From a virus: DNA of 22,060 nucleotides. The notes under the pieces were generated by a model, which did not search any database, was not told the DNA's origin, and worked only from the letters and a program-made list of their open reading frames with translations. Location: positions 1 to 22,060 of IMG/VR virus record IMGVR_UViG_3300011114_000089. One strand, given 5' to 3'. The translations under genes were made by a program, and so were the position numbers. Below are positions 1 to 22,059 of the stretch, one piece after another (the stretch's first letter is position 1; the number at the start of each line of letters is the position of its first letter).

Positions 1-3000
1 GAGTCGAAGCACTAATGAGGGCCTGTACTTGGTCAGTCGTAAGCCCCGTGGCCTTCAGGTCAGCAATAGCTGCGGCAAGCGCTGTTGTATCAGTTGTGGT
101 CTTCGTCGACAGATCAGAAATAGACTTCGCCAATGCAGTCTTTGCATCGTCCAATGCCGTTGTCTGAGCCGTGCTTGCTGCGGTAATTTCCGACCGCAAC
201 CCAGTTGTAACAGTAGCCGTACCAGCAGCAACAAGGGCATTCACTTGCTCTGTAGTCAACCCCGCTGCCGCCAAAGCAGTAATAGACTCCTTGATTCCAT
301 TCAGACTGGTCGTCGTTCCAGAGGCAAGGTCTGCAATGGATTTAGTCAAGCCTTCCTTGGCCGTATTCAATGCCGCTGCTGCTGCATCACCGCTAGTGTT
401 GACGATGGCTTGAACTTGTGCGGTGGTAACACCAGCAGGGATTTTGCTGATCAGGTTCTGTACATCAGCAATGGTGACGCCCGGATTGCTTGCAAGGGCC
501 GTGTTGACGATTACCTTGACTTGATCTGCCGTCAGGCTTGGATTGGCTGCAACTGCATCATTGACAATCTTTGTAACTTGCTCAGGCGTCAGACCGGCAA
601 CTGCCGTTTGAGTTGTCCCTGTTGCTGTACCGGTGCCTGCCGTAGTCGTTGTGCCAGTCCCGGTGGCTGTACCGCCAGCAGTAGTTGTCCCGGTCGTTGT
701 TCCAGTGCCTGTTGTCGTAACGGTTCCAGTCCCCGTAGCAGTTCCCGTAGCCGTCCCAGTCGTTGTTCCGGTCTTTGTGTCCGTTACGGCCTTGTCAACA
801 ACGTCTTTGTTAGTCGGCAAACCACGGATTATTTCCCTGACTTGCTCTGGTGTTGTCTTTGGGTCAGCAGCAAGTTTGTCAACAATAATCTTTTGGATGT
901 CGTCGAACTTCAGCGTTGGGTTTGCCGCAAGTTCTTCTTGAAGAACTATGCTTATGGTGTTTGGCAACGGCTTGATTGCATCAACAATTTTTTGGCCTGT
1001 AGATTGCGCTTGGGTATCCGAAATAGCATTGATGGTTGAAGCAAGGGATTTCGTGCCTGTATCAGTTGCACCAGAAAGAGCATTTTTTGTATCCGCCAAA
1101 GTAACCCAAATTGGTTCTTGGGTTTTCGGATCAATTGCAACCGAGTGACCATCTGAGTAGGTTATTAACGCATAACCGTTAGACGTCATTGAGAATGATG
1201 TTCCAGACGCATCATCCACGCCAAGCAACGAAGGGATACCAAGCGTTGCTAATGCGTTAGGTGCTTGCGATCCAGAACCTTCACCAAACAATGACCTTCC
1301 GCCTTGCGTTGGTGGTTTTGCTGACTGACCAATTGACAGCAAACCGTTTATTGTGTCTTTTGAAAGCTCATCTGCGTTAGAGCCGGATGTGCTAGTTCCA
1401 GTGAGGGTCAAATGCAGCGCACCTGTTGCGGGATCAATGCCATCGCCGGGAGTGACCTTTTGGAATCCATTGGCTTCAGCAAACGCTTTCATCTCCGCAC
1501 TGCTGACGTCCGTAAATGGTTTGCCAGCAAGGGTCTTGGCTTGATCTTCTGTAGCAGTGATGTTGTAGTCACGCTTCAATGCGTTTTGTACGTCAGTGGT
1601 CGACATGACCCGACCAGCATCAGCATTGAAACTAACCTTGTTTCCTGCGTTGTCTGTGAAGTTTAACGGTGCCTGCTTTACCCCGGCAGCGTCGATAAAC
1701 GCTGGCACGCCGTCTTGGAAGAACTTACCACCGCTATCTATCGTCATCCCGTTTGACAGCGTGTATGCCCCGTTGGCGTCCTTGCCAGTGACTGTAATTG
1801 CACCGCTGCCCACTGCGCCGATAAGCACGTCCCTTACGGCAACATCCGCAATTTGTTTTGCGGAGTTTTCAGCGGCTTTGTTTGCAGATGTTTGGGCCGT
1901 TTGGAATTCTGTATAAGCTATTTGATATTTATTTGCCGCTGCCGCCATTTGTGCGGCAAGGTTGTTGCCCGCTGGTGTTTCAATATCGGCCTTAATAGCA
2001 TTAAAGAATTCCGTTTTTGACGCAATCGTAGCTTCCAAAGGCGTTAGTTTGTCTTGAATTGGCTTTAACGTCTCTGTCAAATCAAGCGCCGTTTTAGCAG
2101 CATTGTTTGATTTAGTTGCCGCAGCGTTTGCAGCTACAGCCGCAGCTTTTTGGTCGTTATAAAATGTCTCTATTCCGGGGGCATAAATGCGCGTAGGCGA
2201 ATTCTCGCCATCGCTTGCTTCTTCCTTGTAATATTGAAGCACTCCGTCAGCAAAATCATCGTGGGCAGCAAACCCGCGTTTTATCATTTCATCGTTGTAA
2301 TTGTCAACTACAGCTTTGTTTTTGTCGTATGTGGCTTTATTTGCGTAATACTCAACGTTGGCAGCGTTTTGATCAGTTTCTGCCGCCGTAATCTTTGCAA
2401 TAATTGGGTCAACTTCAGCCGTTTTTATTGCGTTTATTTGCTCAACCGTTTTGTTGATGGTTGTTCTGGCTTCTTCCGAATCTGCAACTTTTGCCTTGTA
2501 AGTATCCTGCAAGGCCGTGTATTTGTCCTGTGCAGCCTGAGCCGCAGTAACTTTGCCAGTCAAATTTTCATAAGAGCTTTTGGCTAATTTGGAAAATTCA
2601 GAAGAGCCAAGGTTGATCATTGCTCCGCCAAGGTAGTTCCCAATGGCTTGCGCTGGATCACCTTTACCGCTGATTATGGTGTTCAGGGCAGTGCTGCTTG
2701 CGCCCTTGACCAAGTTCAGAGCCGTAGGGCTAAGGCCCCAGTTCTGGTCTTTGTTGATAGAGCTAAAGAAGCTATCCGTTGATCCGTAGACAAGCCCAGA
2801 TTGGAACCCGGAAGCCATACCACCGGCAATGCTGTCACCATTGAGAGCAGACTTTATGCCGCCCATCACCGATGAATTCAACGCCGCCGTTGACACCTTA
2901 GCAAGCTGGACTGCTTGGTCAGGAGTCAGGTCAAACGTCTTCATCATGGAGTCCGTCAAGTCTCCGCCTGCCGACCCAACAAATTTCTTGATGTCTGCCC

Positions 3001-3313
3001 CAATGTTAGTTTGGGACATGAATTCCGTTGAGGCGTAAGACATAGCAGCCGACTTAGCAATGTCTTCTAGGCTACCGCCTTTTGCCGCCGTAATAACTGC
3101 CGAAGTTACGTAAGGCGGAATCATGAAGGCGGAACCTACTGCTTGAACAATTGTCTCAAGCGGATGCTCTACGGCATTGGCAAACATATTCGCCATTGGG
3201 GAAATAACCTTCTCAACAACGCTACCGATTGCTTCAAAAGCAGGGTCAAGCGCATTGAAAACATGGTCAATGGCGTTGCCAATTTGATCCATTACCTTTG
3301 TTACGACACCCAT
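1..3313 (-). CDS. Very large Ala/Thr-rich virion protein, probably internal/ejection protein; C-terminus lies outside the window
   Basis: This reading frame starts at ATG 3313 and runs without a stop for 1104 codons to the left edge, so it is incomplete. Residues 1-110 are rich in hydrophobic and small residues (an AVGSAFMIPPYVTSAVI stretch near 57-73) and could contact membrane. About 247-490 is Ala/Lys/Glu-rich and looks coiled-coil. About 495-760 is mixed, with Gly/Asp/Asn-rich turns. Residues 798-845 and 908-980 carry a repeated helical motif (N-P-x-L-T-x-D-Q-V-x-x-I-V), separated by a Thr/Gly linker at 847-901; copies of the L-T-T-[ED]-Q-V motif recur at 1019 and 1091. The start overlaps the upstream stop as TAATG. 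The position after nozzle and GNAT-like genes matches where T7-like phages encode internal ejection proteins. I see no transglycosylase or protease motif in the visible part. A fibre or tape-measure-like role remains possible. Confidence 0.8.
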   Translation of the reverse strand, partial: MGVVTKVMDQIGNAIDHVFNALDPAFEAIGSVVEKVISPMANMFANAVEHPLETIVQAVGSAFMIPPYVTSAVITAAKGGSLEDIAKSAAMSYASTEFMSQTNIGADIKKFVGSAGGDLTDSMMKTFDLTPDQAVQLAKVSTAALNSSVMGGIKSALNGDSIAGGMASGFQSGLVYGSTDSFFSSINKDQNWGLSPTALNLVKGASSTALNTIISGKGDPAQAIGNYLGGAMINLGSSEFSKLAKSSYENLTGKVTAAQAAQDKYTALQDTYKAKVADSEEARTTINKTVEQINAIKTAEVDPIIAKITAAETDQNAANVEYYANKATYDKNKAVVDNYNDEMIKRGFAAHDDFADGVLQYYKEEASDGENSPTRIYAPGIETFYNDQKAAAVAANAAATKSNNAAKTALDLTETLKPIQDKLTPLEATIASKTEFFNAIKADIETPAGNNLAAQMAAAANKYQIAYTEFQTAQTSANKAAENSAKQIADVAVRDVLIGAVGSGAITVTGKDANGAYTLSNGMTIDSGGKFFQDGVPAFIDAAGVKQAPLNFTDNAGNKVSFNADAGRVMSTTDVQNALKRDYNITATEDQAKTLAGKPFTDVSSAEMKAFAEANGFQKVTPGDGIDPATGALHLTLTGTSTSGSNADELSKDTINGLLSIGQSAKPPTQGGRSLFGEGSGSQAPNALATLGIPSLLGVDDASGTSFSMTSNGYALITYSDGHSVAIDPKTQEPIWVTLADTKNALSGATDTGTKSLASTINAISDTQAQSTGQKIVDAIKPLPNTISIVLQEELAANPTLKFDDIQKIIVDKLAADPKTTPEQVREIIRGLPTNKDVVDKAVTDTKTGTTTGTATGTATGTGTVTTTGTGTTTGTTTAGGTATGTGTTTTAGTGTATGTTQTAVAGLTPEQVTKIVNDAVAANPSLTADQVKVIVNTALASNPGVTIADVQNLISKIPAGVTTAQVQAIVNTSGDAAAAALNTAKEGLTKSIADLASGTTTSLNGIKESITALAAAGLTTEQVNALVAAGTATVTTGLRSEITAASTAQTTALDDAKTALAKSISDLSTKTTTDTTALAAAIADLKATGLTTDQVQALISAST
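611..775 (-). repeat. Thr-Gly low-complexity linker coding repeat
   Basis: About 55 codons (residues 847-901 of the large open gene) are almost only Thr and Gly, with some Ala and Val, in alternating patterns such as TGTATGTATGTG. Codons vary (ACG, ACA, ACT, ACC with GGG, GGA, GGC), so the repeat is degenerate in DNA but kept in protein. It probably forms an extended flexible linker. The opposite strand reads as a Val/Pro repeat, which is only a shadow. Confidence 0.85.
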
Positions 3314-15659: not shown

Positions 15660-16118
15660 TTACCAACTAGAGTTGGACTTGTTTTTTGTCGCGGTAGAGA
15701 CCCGACCCGACCCAAGGTTCAAACGGCCAGATTTCCCTGTGTAACTAACAGAACCACCCTTTTTGTAACCGCCACTAAAGTCAGGAGGAGATATAGTTGG
15801 CATTGGGGAATAACCACTATCGTCAATTCCACCACCGTAGCGGCTATTACCTGTGTCGCTACCACTACCACCACCAAGGGCTTGTCGGCCCTGTGCCAAA
15901 GCCATATTGCTTTGATCAAGGCTATTTCCGACTTCCCCTAGCGATTTGCCAATTTGGCTTGAGCCTTTGTTGACTGTTTCCAAACCACCGTAAGCACCGC
16001 CGCCACCGCCGCCGCCGCCGCCGATTTCTGGCGGCATCATTTTTGCAATGTTACCTTTACCGCCAGTGTCGCCAATACCTCTTATTGTGTCCAAAATTGG
16101 GTTACCCGTCATTGCCAT
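15660..16118 (-). CDS. Glycine-rich small protein with one Lys-Lys-Gly-Gly motif
   Basis: A 152-residue protein of unknown function. The N-terminus MAMTGNPILDTIRGIGDTGG is followed by a run of nine Gly (about residues 33-41), a helical part with KSLGEVGNSLDQSNMALAQG, and a disordered Gly/Ser/Pro-rich C-terminus carrying GGYKKGGSVSYTGKSG. That last motif is nearly the same as YKKGGSAKK in the 347-residue protein three genes upstream. A good AAGGAG precedes the ATG at 16118; a second ATG two codons later is possible. It ends NSSW just before the adaptor-like gene. The composition points to a small virion or assembly protein, not an enzyme. Confidence 0.7.
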   Translation of the reverse strand: MAMTGNPILDTIRGIGDTGGKGNIAKMMPPEIGGGGGGGGGAYGGLETVNKGSSQIGKSLGEVGNSLDQSNMALAQGRQALGGGSGSDTGNSRYGGGIDDSGYSPMPTISPPDFSGGYKKGGSVSYTGKSGRLNLGSGRVSTATKNKSNSSW

Positions 16119-16149
16119 GATTGCTCCTTGTGTTTAACAAATTACTCTA

Positions 16150-16524
16150 TCACCAACCGGGGCAGTTCCACCGCTTCAGCGATGCCTTAGCGCGAGGAGC
16201 GTCACCCTTTGAATGTTCGACTACACCAGACATCCGAGCGCAGAAAGAATCCTTGCGTGAACCGCCCTGTGGCTGGGGTGCCTTCAGGTGCGATCCGGTC
16301 TCACGATTGTACTTCTCGCGGCCTTTCTGGGTAAGTCCCGCGCCTTGCTCAACTGGAAGTTTTTCACCGCGCCCGACAGCCAAAGAAACGCCACCAGACT
16401 TCATCTTTTTCTTGTCAGCCGCAACGAACTCTTTTCCGACCTTCTGCGGGACGCCACCGAACCCACCCTTGGTATGGGCCGCTGCCTCCATCAAGCGATG
16501 TTGGGAAGGTGACTTGCTTGGCAT
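16150..16524 (-). CDS. Small basic protein with conserved SFCARMSG motif (DUF6321-like)
   Basis: A 124-residue Lys/Arg/Gly-rich protein. Its C-terminal half contains GLTQKGREKYNRETGSHLKA, KDSFCARMSG and ASLKRWNC, three motifs that occur together in a small protein family of marine and freshwater phages that I recall as DUF6321; the name should be checked. The N-terminal half has KKKMKSGGVSLAVGRG, which matches the Lys-Gly-Gly motif of neighbouring proteins. Two cysteines in conserved motifs could bind metal or form a disulphide, but this is not proven. It begins two bases after the upstream TGA without a clear Shine-Dalgarno sequence, so coupling is likely. A DNA-binding or head-associated role fits the charge but is a guess. 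Confidence 0.75.
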   Translation of the reverse strand: MPSKSPSQHRLMEAAAHTKGGFGGVPQKVGKEFVAADKKKMKSGGVSLAVGRGEKLPVEQGAGLTQKGREKYNRETGSHLKAPQPQGGSRKDSFCARMSGVVEHSKGDAPRAKASLKRWNCPGW

Positions 16525-16526
16525 GA

Positions 16527-16946
16527 TCAGGTCACAGGGTTGACGTAGTGCTTTTGCATTTCAAGAATTACGGTGTATGAGTCACCAGCACTGCCGTCTA
16601 ACGTTGTAAACGTGATTACGCCATCCTTACCAGTTCCAGCGTTATTCCACAAACCGCCAAAATTTGAATAATCTTGCGTGTAATTTGTATTATTTGGAAC
16701 AGTTTCAATGACTACTGGAGTATTTGCTTTCCAGTTCATTTGCACTTCCAAACCATGCGTCATTGCTGTGCATTTCAAAATGCTTACAGCATCGCAAGCA
16801 CCACCAGCCGCTGACGGGTTGAGCGCTGACGGCGTTACTTTTGCAACGCCGGATTCGTTTTCAGTCGTAGTCATCGTCGCATAGAACTTCATGATGGCAA
16901 TTCGTTCGCCATCAAACAATGTTTGGGATGTAGCAGTAATAGTCAT
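16527..16946 (-). CDS. Small beta-sandwich-like virion protein of unknown function
   Basis: A 139-residue protein beginning MTITATSQTLFDGERIAIMK and ending DSYTVILEMQKHYVNPVT. The alternating hydrophobic pattern suggests an all-beta fold, and the FDGERIAIMKFYA start with a late NFGGLWNNAGTGKDGVITFT segment is a combination I associate with small structural proteins in related uncultured phages. Two cysteines (near residues 50 and 59) are present. A GGAGAG ribosome binding site lies five bases before the ATG and partly overlaps the tail of the upstream terminator. It could be a decoration or fibre-head protein; I do not know its role. Confidence 0.72.
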   Translation of the reverse strand: MTITATSQTLFDGERIAIMKFYATMTTTENESGVAKVTPSALNPSAAGGACDAVSILKCTAMTHGLEVQMNWKANTPVVIETVPNNTNYTQDYSNFGGLWNNAGTGKDGVITFTTLDGSAGDSYTVILEMQKHYVNPVT

Positions 16947-16958
16947 GTTCTCTCCAAT

Positions 16959-16981
16959 AAAAAGCAGGGGCCTAAGCCCCC
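16959..16981 (-). terminator. Intrinsic terminator after the Lys-Gly-Gly-rich gene
   Basis: On the minus strand a GGGGC / GCCCC stem (16980-16976 with 16971-16967) closes a four-base loop and is followed by TGC and five T (16963-16959). It lies nine bases after the stop of the 347-residue gene and only 13 bases before the next ATG. The T run is short and displaced, so partial termination is more likely than a full block. Confidence 0.6.
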
Positions 16982-16989
16982 ACTTTACT

Positions 16990-18033
16990 TCAGCACTTCA
17001 TTGCCCCGCCACGCTTCTTAGGAACAACCGTAACGGCTTCCTTCGACTTCGTGACGCTACCAGCAGGAGGATTGATGAATCCACGCCCTGCGCCTGCTTC
17101 CTTTTTGGGAGCAAACAGGTTGTCAATAAAGCTGTGCGCCTTCTTGGCAAATCCCATCCCCATTGGAGGGGCGTTCAATACCTTGTCGTACTCGCCGTTT
17201 GAAAGATCAACGTCACCGCCTTCTTTCATTTTCATCTTACTAGCAGGGCCATATTTCAGGTTGCTATCAGACTTAGCTACCCGCATTGCAGGAGCATTTT
17301 CATTGGCGGACATACCTTGCAACTGACGATTACCCGGAGCTACCCGGCCACCACTCTTGTACGTCCCGGTGAGGGCCGTGATGCTGATTGGCTTTGGAAC
17401 AGGCTTGTTGCCTTGCTTCATTGCGACAGGGGCACCTGAATCAACAGCTCCCCCCGCCGCGAAGGCTTTTTTTGCTGAACCACCCTTCTTGTAGCCGCCC
17501 TGACCATTGACAACACCGCCAGTAGCGTAGCCACCTTGACCGTCGACAACGCCACCCGTTGCATAACCGCCGCCGTTGCCGTTAACAACACCACCAGTAG
17601 CCATCTTGCCACCCTTTTTGAGGGCCAGCTTCGTGCCTTTGCCGCCTTTATGCTCTTGCATATCGTGCTGCTTGAAAGCCTTCTTGATCATGGCCTTGTC
17701 TTGAGCCATTTCGCCTTTACTGCCTTCAGCCATGCCACCCTTCTTCATCATGGCGGACATAGGCCCGACAGGAGCAGCAGGGCCAGCACCGGCAGGAACC
17801 TTCATAGCGCGTCGACGCATAGCCAGCGAAGGCTTCATAGGCGAAGCACCCATTGGAGGAGCGCCACGCATCGGCATTGGGCTTGGCATTGCGCTTGGAG
17901 GCGGTGCAGAAGGAGGAGGAGGCATCATCATGCCGCCGTCAGCCTTCTTCTGAACCTTGCCACCCTTTTTGAGCTTTAGCTCAACGGTTGGCTCGGTGGT
18001 CATCATCTTGACCATTGGTTTAAATTGACCCAT
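16990..18033 (-). CDS. Low-complexity Lys/Gly/Met/Pro-rich protein with repeated K-K-G-G and T-G-G-V-V motifs
   Basis: A 347-residue, strongly basic protein with no recognisable globular domain. Residues 22-27 are KKGGKV; further copies of the pattern are MKKGGMA, LKKGGKMA, YKKGGSA, YKSGGRVA, MKEGGDVD and the final KKRGGAMKC. A Met/Pro-rich stretch lies at about 34-70 (PPPPSAPPPSAMPSPMPMRG). Residues 145-181 are three tandem 12-13-residue units of the form YATGGVVNGQGG. About 255-310 looks more ordered (NLKYGPASKMKMKEGGDVDL, then MGMGFAKKAHSFIDNLFAPK). The ATG has AAGGAG six bases upstream. It sits between two terminators with the preceding gene. Binding of DNA or of the capsid interior would fit the charge, but I do not know its function. 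Confidence 0.75.
   Translation of the reverse strand: MGQFKPMVKMMTTEPTVELKLKKGGKVQKKADGGMMMPPPPSAPPPSAMPSPMPMRGAPPMGASPMKPSLAMRRRAMKVPAGAGPAAPVGPMSAMMKKGGMAEGSKGEMAQDKAMIKKAFKQHDMQEHKGGKGTKLALKKGGKMATGGVVNGNGGGYATGGVVDGQGGYATGGVVNGQGGYKKGGSAKKAFAAGGAVDSGAPVAMKQGNKPVPKPISITALTGTYKSGGRVAPGNRQLQGMSANENAPAMRVAKSDSNLKYGPASKMKMKEGGDVDLSNGEYDKVLNAPPMGMGFAKKAHSFIDNLFAPKKEAGAGRGFINPPAGSVTKSKEAVTVVPKKRGGAMKC
17491..17601 (-). repeat. 36-base tandem repeat, three units, in frame
   Basis: Units at 17491-17526, 17527-17562 and 17563-17601 (the last 39 bases) code YATGGVVNGQGG, YATGGVVDGQGG and MATGGVVNGNGGG-like sequence. Differences are mostly in third codon positions, showing that the peptide, more than the DNA, is conserved. 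Confidence 0.85.
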
Positions 18034-19075: not shown

Positions 19076-19990
19076 TTACACGCCGGGTGTACCGTACATT
19101 GCGCGGGGGTCAGTGAAACCCACTTGGTAACGCTCGGTAGCCTTGTAGCGCATGGAGTCGGTTTCAAAGTCACCTTCCATCGTCTTTTCCAGCTTCCGGC
19201 GCATCAGGAGCTTCATGCCCTCTGGTGCATCGGTCTGAACCCACCAAGCCGTTGCGGAGGTCAAACGTGACAGAACAGCAGCACCATCGTCAAGCAAGCC
19301 GATAGACTTGATTGGGTTGATGTCGTTGTTTGCGTTGCCAGCACGCAGAACAGACTTCAGCAGAACTTCAGCTTGGAAGACGTTGCCCGGAGCCACAGCG
19401 AGTTGCTTAGGAACCAGACGAATCTTCTTGCCGTTGTTGTCCACTGCTTGGCGAATCTGAATCAGCATCTGCTCAAGCGATGTCTGGCTCAGGTTGGCGG
19501 CGGTAGCCAATTGATTGCTGAAAGTACCGTTCACGATTGGGTGTGCCGTGCTAATCAGCGACACGCCATCGCCACCGGGGTACGAAGCGTTGAAAGCGCG
19601 GTTCAGCACGTTAGCTGCAAGCGTTTCCTTCGTTTCGATCAGTGACTGAGCGAGGTGACGAGCATAGACCTGACCGATACGGATATGGTCGCCGTCTTCA
19701 ACCAGAACTTTGGTCAACGCGAAGGCAAGGCCATACACGTTGTAAACATAGCGCTGGAGGAAGAGAACACCACCCTGCTGATACGAAACCGGAGTTCCGT
19801 CAGGCAGTTGAGGCGCGGCACCGAATCCGTACAGGACTGGCTCTTCGTGATAGTTGCGGGGAATACCTTCTTGCTCACGGAAAATCCGCGACCATTCATC
19901 GGTACGTTGGTCGTAAACACCGTCGAAACATTCGTTCAGGATTGGTTCAACAATCGAACGAAAGTCCGTACTACGCATTGGAGCAGCCAT
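19076..19990 (-). CDS. Major capsid protein
   Basis: A 304-residue protein that would form the head shell. It lies directly after scaffolding and decoration genes, and its composition and layout fit an HK97-fold capsid: an N-terminal arm (RSIVEPILNECFDGVYDQRT), a long helical spine region (EDGDHIRIGQVYARHLAQSL, ETKETLAANVLNRAF), a turn-rich part with STAHPIVNGTFSNQLATAAN, and a C-terminal ERYQVGFTDPRAMYG strand. It resembles major head proteins of the Mu gpT-like or short-tailed environmental phage type; I cannot fix the family without a search. The Shine-Dalgarno AAAGGAGG at ideal spacing, overlapping the upstream stop, is the strongest here, and an intrinsic terminator follows, both as expected for the most abundant virion protein. 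Confidence 0.88.
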   Translation of the reverse strand: MAAPMRSTDFRSIVEPILNECFDGVYDQRTDEWSRIFREQEGIPRNYHEEPVLYGFGAAPQLPDGTPVSYQQGGVLFLQRYVYNVYGLAFALTKVLVEDGDHIRIGQVYARHLAQSLIETKETLAANVLNRAFNASYPGGDGVSLISTAHPIVNGTFSNQLATAANLSQTSLEQMLIQIRQAVDNNGKKIRLVPKQLAVAPGNVFQAEVLLKSVLRAGNANNDINPIKSIGLLDDGAAVLSRLTSATAWWVQTDAPEGMKLLMRRKLEKTMEGDFETDSMRYKATERYQVGFTDPRAMYGTPGV

Positions 19991-21147: not shown

Positions 21148-22059
21148 TTAGCTCCTAGAGTTACGTGCGTCAGCGGCATACCGCTTGATCATTCGGTTAC
21201 GTTTTTCAGTGTCTTCCCAGAAACCGGCATCCTTCATAGCCCGAACCTGTTCTGGTTCAAGCACGAAGGAGTTGCCGCCTCGGCTCACTGACTCACGCCC
21301 CGACCCCGTCACTACGCTCTTGGGTCTCCTTCTGGAGTATTCGTCGTTACTTTGAGTATAGCGGTGTGGCAAACGTTTTTGCAAGCGGGTGTCAAGTTCA
21401 TCCCAATAATCTTGCGATTCTGGGTTCCAGCCCTCTGCAACAAGCCTGTTGTCAATGACTTTGGCAATAGCTGTGTCCTCGTCATTTGAGTCCGGGCTAT
21501 ACCAGTCGTTCTTCTCCATCCAGTTATTCGCCAGCTTCATCAGCTTAGGATTAACTGCCCCAGTCTCCTGCGATGTGTTCTGGGTAGCACGCTGCTTGTA
21601 GTCCTTCATGGCTTCTACTTTGCGGCGGCTGTCGTACCACATTTCCTGCGCCTTCGTGAATGCCGTACCGTCCGAGTTATCGGTGGCCTCTCGCATTTTG
21701 GCAATGGCGTAGTTCAGGCGAAGCTCTTCGTCGTCAATCGCCTTGTCGTAACGGGCCAGATCGGCACCGTGCGTCTTGCGCTCAACAACCGACAGGCGCT
21801 CTTCAAGCTCTTGATTACGGCGCTGCAAGAGGCTAAGACGTTGGTCTTTCTCCTCGTTGGTGCGCTTGATGTAATCCTTCTTGGCGTGACGGCGATTGCG
21901 TCGAGCTTCACGGATTGCATCCGTATCGTTAGGCTGATCCCGGTCGTCGTCAGACGCACTAGGGGCCTCAATGTGATCGGGAAGGTCTACAGTGGCAGAA
22001 CCGTCCTTCTCCTCTGTAACGTCCATATCATGGACATCGTCGTCTTTTTCGGTACTCAT
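21148..22059 (-). CDS. Capsid scaffolding protein
   Basis: A 303-residue protein starting one base inside the right edge (ATG 22059), so the start is likely but its ribosome binding site is not visible and a longer form cannot be excluded. The first 50 residues are very acidic (EKDDDVHDMDVTEEKDG), followed by a long coiled coil (about 60-165, including RLSLLQRRNQELEERLSVVE), a Trp-rich middle (NWMEKNDWYSPDSNDEDTAI, EGWNPESQDYWDEL) and a basic C-terminus (EPEQVRAMKDAGFWEDTEKR, then a short Arg-rich helix). Acidic start, coiled coil and basic capsid-binding end, together with its position two genes ahead of the capsid gene, fit a scaffolding protein that guides procapsid assembly. No protease motif is seen. 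Confidence 0.8.
   Translation of the reverse strand: MSTEKDDDVHDMDVTEEKDGSATVDLPDHIEAPSASDDDRDQPNDTDAIREARRNRRHAKKDYIKRTNEEKDQRLSLLQRRNQELEERLSVVERKTHGADLARYDKAIDDEELRLNYAIAKMREATDNSDGTAFTKAQEMWYDSRRKVEAMKDYKQRATQNTSQETGAVNPKLMKLANNWMEKNDWYSPDSNDEDTAIAKVIDNRLVAEGWNPESQDYWDELDTRLQKRLPHRYTQSNDEYSRRRPKSVVTGSGRESVSRGGNSFVLEPEQVRAMKDAGFWEDTEKRNRMIKRYAADARNSRS

What the first reader, a model, noticed from the sequence alone, without database searches (positions are those of the whole stretch)
15660..18033. Lys-Gly-Gly motif shared by three neighbouring virion-region proteins
Seen: the pattern [KY]-[KS]-G-G-[KRSV] occurs many times in the 347-residue protein (KKGGKV, MKKGGMA, LKKGGKMA, YKKGGSA, YKSGGRVA), once in the 152-residue protein (YKKGGSV) and once in the 124-residue protein (MKSGGVS). 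Inference: a shared short linear motif, such as a docking tag to a common partner, a DNA-contact patch or a cleavage signal. I know of no description of this as a system.
Basis: partly seen in the sequence, partly recalled or inferred. Interest (0 to 1): 0.6.

Follow-up and report, generated by a model that had tools for sequence, protein, structure and literature searches.

The report
Shared tag on predicted phage-injected proteins
A short peptide (roughly Tyr/Phe/Met-x-x-Gly-Gly-x-Val) recurs in the head-region proteins of a widespread group of environmental phages, above all in large effector proteins thought to be injected into the host and in one disordered protein carrying it about six times, so it is probably a tag that gathers or loads proteins into the phage head, although nobody has yet shown what binds it.

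Summary
The 347-aa protein holds 5 K[KS]GG (0.2 expected) and 10 of the broader hxxGGx[VAM] (0.8 expected). It is predicted disordered and is found, mostly with 4-6 copies, in about 70 of 80 relatives. The 152-aa and 124-aa (DUF6321) proteins each carry one copy.

In 11 long relatives [FYM]xxGGx[VAI] is concentrated in this protein (17 per 1000 aa), in the large variable protein encoded between terminase and portal (2.7) and in DUF6321 proteins (2.7). The other 668 genes match chance (23 against 23.9). The pre-portal slot holds polyvalent effectors (ADP-ribosyltransferase, PcfJ, zeta toxin, transglycosylase, GP88). The motif often lies in their last 10-40 residues, on tails shared by proteins with unrelated bodies. 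ADP-ribosyltransferase polyvalent proteins carry it in phages with this portal (35 against 2.3 expected), not in other phages (11 against 10.5).

Best explanation: a cargo tag for loading injected proteins into the head, working like, but not shown homologous to, the T4 capsid-targeting sequence. The receptor is unknown and virion loading is not shown. DNA-contact and cleavage readings are disfavoured.

The parts
16990..18033 (-). K-GG protein, 347 aa, disordered, carries about ten h-x-x-GG-x-[VAM] motifs; constant N-terminus MGQFKPMVKMMTTEPTVELKLKKGG and C-terminus KKRGG..KC
   Evidence: AlphaFold mean pLDDT 49
17953..17973 (-). first motif copy of the K-GG protein, LKKGGKV, residues 21-27, GG invariant in the alignment
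16150..16524 (-). 124-aa protein: N-terminal helical part (phrog_16759) and C-terminal DUF6321 domain, motif in the linker between them
16384..16404 (-). motif MKSGGVS, residues 41-47, in the low-confidence linker; absent from DUF6321 of DSL-LC05 and S-CBP4
15660..16118 (-). 152-aa protein with one motif 35 residues from its C-terminus; relatives in the same slot share the C-terminal tail
15747..15767 (-). motif YKKGGSV, residues 118-124 of the 152-aa protein
21148..22059 (-). scaffold-position protein, 303 aa; this copy has no motif, but 20 of 66 homologues carry one near the N-terminus (e.g. EMASGGEVDADAE); role inferred from position
19076..19990 (-). major capsid protein (Phage_capsid_4), defines the head lineage; no motif

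Best explanation
The motif [FYM]-[AK]-x-G-G-x-[VA] is a short linear cargo tag of phages that share one portal/GroES/scaffold/capsid head module. SHOWN by sequence: it is enriched and direction-specific; it is concentrated in the large effector-type proteins encoded beside the portal, in the DUF6321 protein, in part of the scaffold homologues and in a disordered protein with about six copies, while the rest of the genome is at chance level; in the effectors it often sits in the C-terminal tail; and it goes with the head lineage, not with the enzyme it is attached to. INFERRED: a head-assembly component (portal vertex, scaffold or inner capsid face) binds the tag in the procapsid, so that tagged proteins are enclosed with the DNA and injected; the multi-copy protein is a multivalent partner or abundant co-packaged adaptor. 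Receptor, presence in the virion and injection are not shown.
For: Per-cluster enrichment in 80 relatives: K-GG 6.0 per protein against 0.16 shuffled and 0.20 reversed; pre-portal protein 2.44 against 0.16 and 0.44. Whole contigs: rest of genome 23 against 23.9 shuffled. ART-PolyVal proteins: 35 motifs against 2.3 expected with this portal family, 11 against 10.5 elsewhere, Fisher p=2e-5. Second portal lineage repeats the pattern. C-terminal position: 22/34 and 28/63 against 16/578 and 20/529; similar tails on unrelated bodies. Same residue preferences around GG in the two carrier classes, different in other proteins. K-GG protein predicted disordered. Phage polyvalent proteins are predicted from gene context to be packaged and injected (PMC5512222).
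Against: No protein of this group is shown to be in a virion. No receptor identified. About a third to a half of pre-portal proteins lack a C-terminal copy. Tails adjoin the portal gene, so recombination could carry them along. The motif form and carrier classes were refined while looking at the data.
Confidence: 0.5

Rival explanations
1. Self-docking: the motif binds a partner among the tagged proteins themselves. The disordered K-GG protein is a multivalent hub that holds effectors together, inside the head or after injection, and no capsid component reads the tag.
For: Multi-copy disordered protein encoded in the same head region; an unrelated multi-copy K-GG protein occurs in MW202675, which also has tagged polyvalent proteins.
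Against: Divergent lineage members such as DSL-LC04 have tagged proteins but only small single-copy K-GG proteins; no binding domain for the motif was identified.
Confidence: 0.17
2. Host-side role: the motif acts after injection, for example in passage through the envelope, or by engaging a host chaperone or protease.
For: The carriers are mainly proteins predicted to be injected.
Against: ART-PolyVal proteins of other phages, presumably also injected, lack it, and it follows the portal lineage. It also occurs in some scaffold homologues, which are not expected to be injected.
Confidence: 0.14
3. Cleavage signal: a maturation protease cuts at or near GG.
For: Head proteins and internal proteins of other phages are processed at short motifs (T4-type, general knowledge; SPN3US, PMC7411985).
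Against: S78, S49 and ClpP families not found in 16 long relatives; about six sites in one protein and sites a few residues from the C-terminus are unusual. S77 and Mu-type searches were uninformative.
Confidence: 0.07
4. No specific function: glycine linkers and low-complexity drift in fast-evolving disordered stretches.
For: Most copies lie in disordered or linker stretches; the K-GG protein is low in complexity.
Against: The reversed pattern and shuffles give near-chance counts; aromatic/Met at -3 and Val at +3 are specific; glycine-rich fibre proteins are not enriched.
Confidence: 0.08
5. DNA-contact patch: the Lys-rich motif binds packaged DNA.
For: The K-GG protein is 13% Lys.
Against: Net charge of the 7-mer in pre-portal proteins is symmetric about zero, with acidic forms common.
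Confidence: 0.04

Closest known systems
T4 capsid-targeting sequence (CTS) of internal proteins IPI-III and Alt (reviews found, e.g. PMC3012670, PMC9026906)
   Same: A short peptide on otherwise unrelated proteins that directs them into the prohead and so into the host (proposed here, established for T4).
   Different: From general knowledge the T4 CTS is N-terminal and removed by the gp21 protease; this motif is C-terminal, in linkers or repeated, and no prohead protease was detected. No sequence relation tested.
Phage polyvalent proteins (Iyer et al. 2017, PMC5512222)
   Same: The pre-portal carriers have the domains of that class (ART-PolyVal, PcfJ, transglycosylase, zeta toxin) and the genomic context of structural genes.
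   Different: That paper describes domains and, in the passages searched, no shared short motif or packaging signal. The K-GG and DUF6321 proteins are not polyvalent proteins.
DUF6321 (PF19846)
   Same: The 124-aa protein contains this domain.
   Different: Domain function unknown; homologues in DSL-LC05 and S-CBP4 lack the KxGG segment.
KGG repeat family PF10685 (stress-induced repeat, GsiB/YciG)
   Same: Both show Lys-Gly-Gly repeated in a small basic, disordered protein (from general knowledge).
   Different: No Pfam match of the 347-aa protein even at E of 10.

Membership tests
T4-type capsid-targeting sequence | N-terminal position on the carried proteins | tested here: not met
   Motif enriched at C-terminal tails and in linkers; an N-terminal position is seen in some proteins only
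T4-type capsid-targeting sequence | Cleavage by a prohead protease during maturation | tested here: inconclusive
   S78, S49 and ClpP not found; S77 search without positive control
T4-type capsid-targeting sequence | Needed and sufficient for encapsidation | not testable with these tools
   needs an experiment
Phage polyvalent proteins (pre-portal carriers) | Effector domains of the class in large, usually multidomain proteins | tested here: met
   ART-PolyVal in L006, L029, L080; PcfJ in DSL-LC04; zeta toxin in L193, L197; GP88 in L082; SLT in L248. Nine others had no Pfam match
Phage polyvalent proteins (pre-portal carriers) | Encoded among terminase, portal and head genes | tested here: met
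   between large terminase and portal
Phage polyvalent proteins (pre-portal carriers) | Packaged in the virion and injected | not testable with these tools
   predicted in PMC5512222 from gene context; no proteomics here
DUF6321 (124-aa protein) | Profile match above the curated cut-off | tested here: met
   62.1 bits, cut-off 28.5
KGG repeat PF10685 (347-aa protein) | Profile match above the curated cut-off | tested here: not met
   no Pfam family even at E up to 10

The most novel reading that the evidence does not exclude
A modular cargo system used by many environmental podovirus-like phages: any effector acquires the tag, often through an exchangeable C-terminal tail next to the portal gene, and a disordered multi-tag protein gathers the tagged proteins at the portal so that they are enclosed and injected together. 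A tag plus a multivalent organiser would be a kind of head-loading machinery not yet described.
Probability: 0.22. Interest if true: 0.85.

Novelty: new variant of a known kind. Interest (0 to 1): 0.62.

Why it matters
How phages choose which proteins to enclose in the head and inject is understood for only a few models. A tag that can be read from sequence would let predicted injected effectors be listed straight from metagenomes, would give a handle on many unannotated phage genes, and would make head loading testable by changing a few residues in a cultivable relative.

Tried and rejected
Pfam and PHROG searches of the 347-aa and 152-aa proteins: no match. PF10685 KGG repeat: no match. The MPPGGPV hit in divergent portals was not counted as a tag: one fixed site in nearly all those portals, corresponding to a conserved stretch of the portal (FPPDGPV in others), judged structural. 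Motif hits in tail fibres: chance level. Phages outside the group (Syn9, S-CBP4, Lederberg) and Pag-Yong1: no enrichment. Relatives of the window's 1104-aa ejection-like ORF: one locus only, so that class was judged from whole contigs. Clustering of tails by similarity joined nearly all tagged tails into one group, partly because of the motif itself, so it does not count independent origins. An idea that the motif imitates the GGIV mobile loop of GroES, suggested by the phage-encoded GroES beside it, rests on memory only and was not tested. Literature searches for such a motif found nothing, but only open-licence papers are held.

Full report
Observation. The three ORFs are real and lie close together in the head-tail region of a 22-kb fragment of an uncultured tailed phage, whose major capsid protein (19076-19990, minus strand) is 90% identical to that of MW202545 and 78% to that of Caulobacter phage RW. 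The 347-aa protein has 5 K[KS]GG where 0.23 are expected from its composition, and 10 of the broader hxxGGx[VAM] where 0.77 are expected. No other protein of the window is enriched.

Relatives. Eighty contigs with a close capsid protein were fetched. About 70 encode the K-GG protein shortly after the capsid gene, with a constant N-terminus (MGQFKPMVKMMTTEPxVELKLKKGG), usually a Cys at the end, and mostly 4-6 KxGG. Many of the invariant columns are GG sites. AlphaFold gives mean pLDDT 49, i.e. probable disorder. The 124-aa protein is a DUF6321 protein whose motif lies in a low-confidence linker between two helical parts. In two phages outside the group the DUF6321 protein lacks that segment. 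Proteins in the slot of the 152-aa protein share a C-terminal tail with GG sites.

A wider carrier set. Clustering the ORFs of the 80 loci and scoring [FYM]x[^G]GGx[VAI] gave two large outliers: the K-GG protein (6.0 per protein; shuffled 0.16; reversed pattern 0.20) and a protein of about 1100 aa encoded between terminase and portal (2.44; 0.16; 0.44). Capsid, portal, adaptor and stabilisation proteins are near zero. Some scaffold homologues carry one copy near the N-terminus (20 of 66). In 11 long contigs the rest of the genome (668 genes) has 23 motifs against 23.9 by shuffling. The residue preferences around GG, taken separately from the two carriers, agree with each other and differ from those of other GG sites.

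What the pre-portal protein is. Members carry ART-PolyVal, PcfJ, GP88, zeta-toxin or transglycosylase domains, or nothing recognisable. Phage polyvalent proteins are predicted, mainly from gene context, to be packaged in the head and injected (PMC5512222). In the passages searched that paper names no shared signal.

Which property the motif follows. ADP-ribosyltransferase polyvalent proteins from many phages were fetched. With a portal of this family they hold 35 motifs in 17.5 thousand residues (2.3 expected, 5 reversed); in other phages 11 in 79.6 thousand (10.5 expected, 16 reversed). So the motif follows the head lineage and not the enzyme. Two plasmid-borne polyvalent proteins have none, where less than one was expected. 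A second, divergent portal lineage (about 28% identical) repeats the pattern in its pre-portal proteins and in small proteins beside the portal.

Position. In pre-portal proteins the motif is over-represented in the last 32 residues (22/34 and 28/63, against 16/578 and 20/529 for other proteins; about 1 expected by shuffling), for example YFKRGGSVERVYNDNRTYK at a C-terminus. Similar tails occur on proteins with no detectable similarity elsewhere (105 of 254 tail-alike pairs). All 16 GGN-GGN codon pairs are used, which speaks for selection on the protein. Because the tail lies next to the portal gene, recombination could carry tails along; this lowers the number of independent cases, but it does not explain the K-GG, DUF6321 and linker copies.

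Complete or nearly complete isolate genomes. Enrichment is seen where extra large proteins are encoded beside the portal: MW202545, DSL-LC04, HTVC027P and MW202675. MW202675 also has its own 382-aa multi-copy K-GG protein. Genomes without such proteins (RW, HTVC023P, CRP-901, QDWS535, Pag-Yong1, MW202785, MW202796, MW202601) have only a few hits, though RW and HTVC023P each have a copy close to the C-terminus of a large late-region protein. What counts as enriched was judged after the fact and the sample is small.

Mechanism. The best reading is a cargo tag read by the head-assembly machinery, with the multi-copy protein as partner or co-packaged adaptor. Shown: distribution, direction, position, link to head lineage, codon freedom, predicted disorder. 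Inferred: binding, head loading, injection, receptor. Rivals are self-docking, a host-side role, cleavage, mere linker composition and DNA contact; the last two are poorly supported. It would work like the T4 capsid-targeting sequence, but it is not filed as a member: its position differs (tested), and processing and sufficiency are untested.

Limits. There is no proteomics. Motif form and carrier classes were refined while looking at the data; shuffles, reversed patterns, the second lineage and the whole-contig table guard against this but do not remove it. Many sequences are related, so Fisher p-values overstate the evidence. Gene calls are mechanical ORFs. Literature searches cover open-licence papers only.

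Noticed in passing
window 2-3313 (-): A 1104-aa ORF of the late region that runs off the window end, with a C-terminal half rich in Thr/Ala/Gly repeats; probably an ejection or tail-interior protein. Only one relative was found in viral contigs.
   Followed up: partly
G001, G006, G010, G013, G015: A large late protein carries FKxGGxxxPLMAxGG about 115-130 residues before its C-terminus, followed by the constant stretch GDGQSDDIPAMLADGEFV; the motif-like part may belong to the same system or to that domain.
   Followed up: no
G011 portal C-terminus; HTVC027P large terminase (L362:12872-14350): Single tag-like C-terminal copies on a portal (MAKGGLV, 16 residues from the end) and on a large terminase (FRQGGLI, 26 from the end).
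   Followed up: no
L320, L319, L321: DUF6321 is present in 258 phage records, mostly cyanophages, near terminase or head genes in the ones looked at, yet no paper in the library names it.
   Followed up: partly
L172-L248, e.g. L169:2939-3190: A small conserved basic protein (MPLKKGSSQKTISxNIxE...KIY, about 83 aa) sits just after the portal gene in the divergent lineage and carries a single tag-like motif in about 40% of members.
   Followed up: no
L002-L081 and isolates: A phage-encoded GroES-like co-chaperonin lies between portal and scaffold genes in nearly all members of the group.
   Followed up: no
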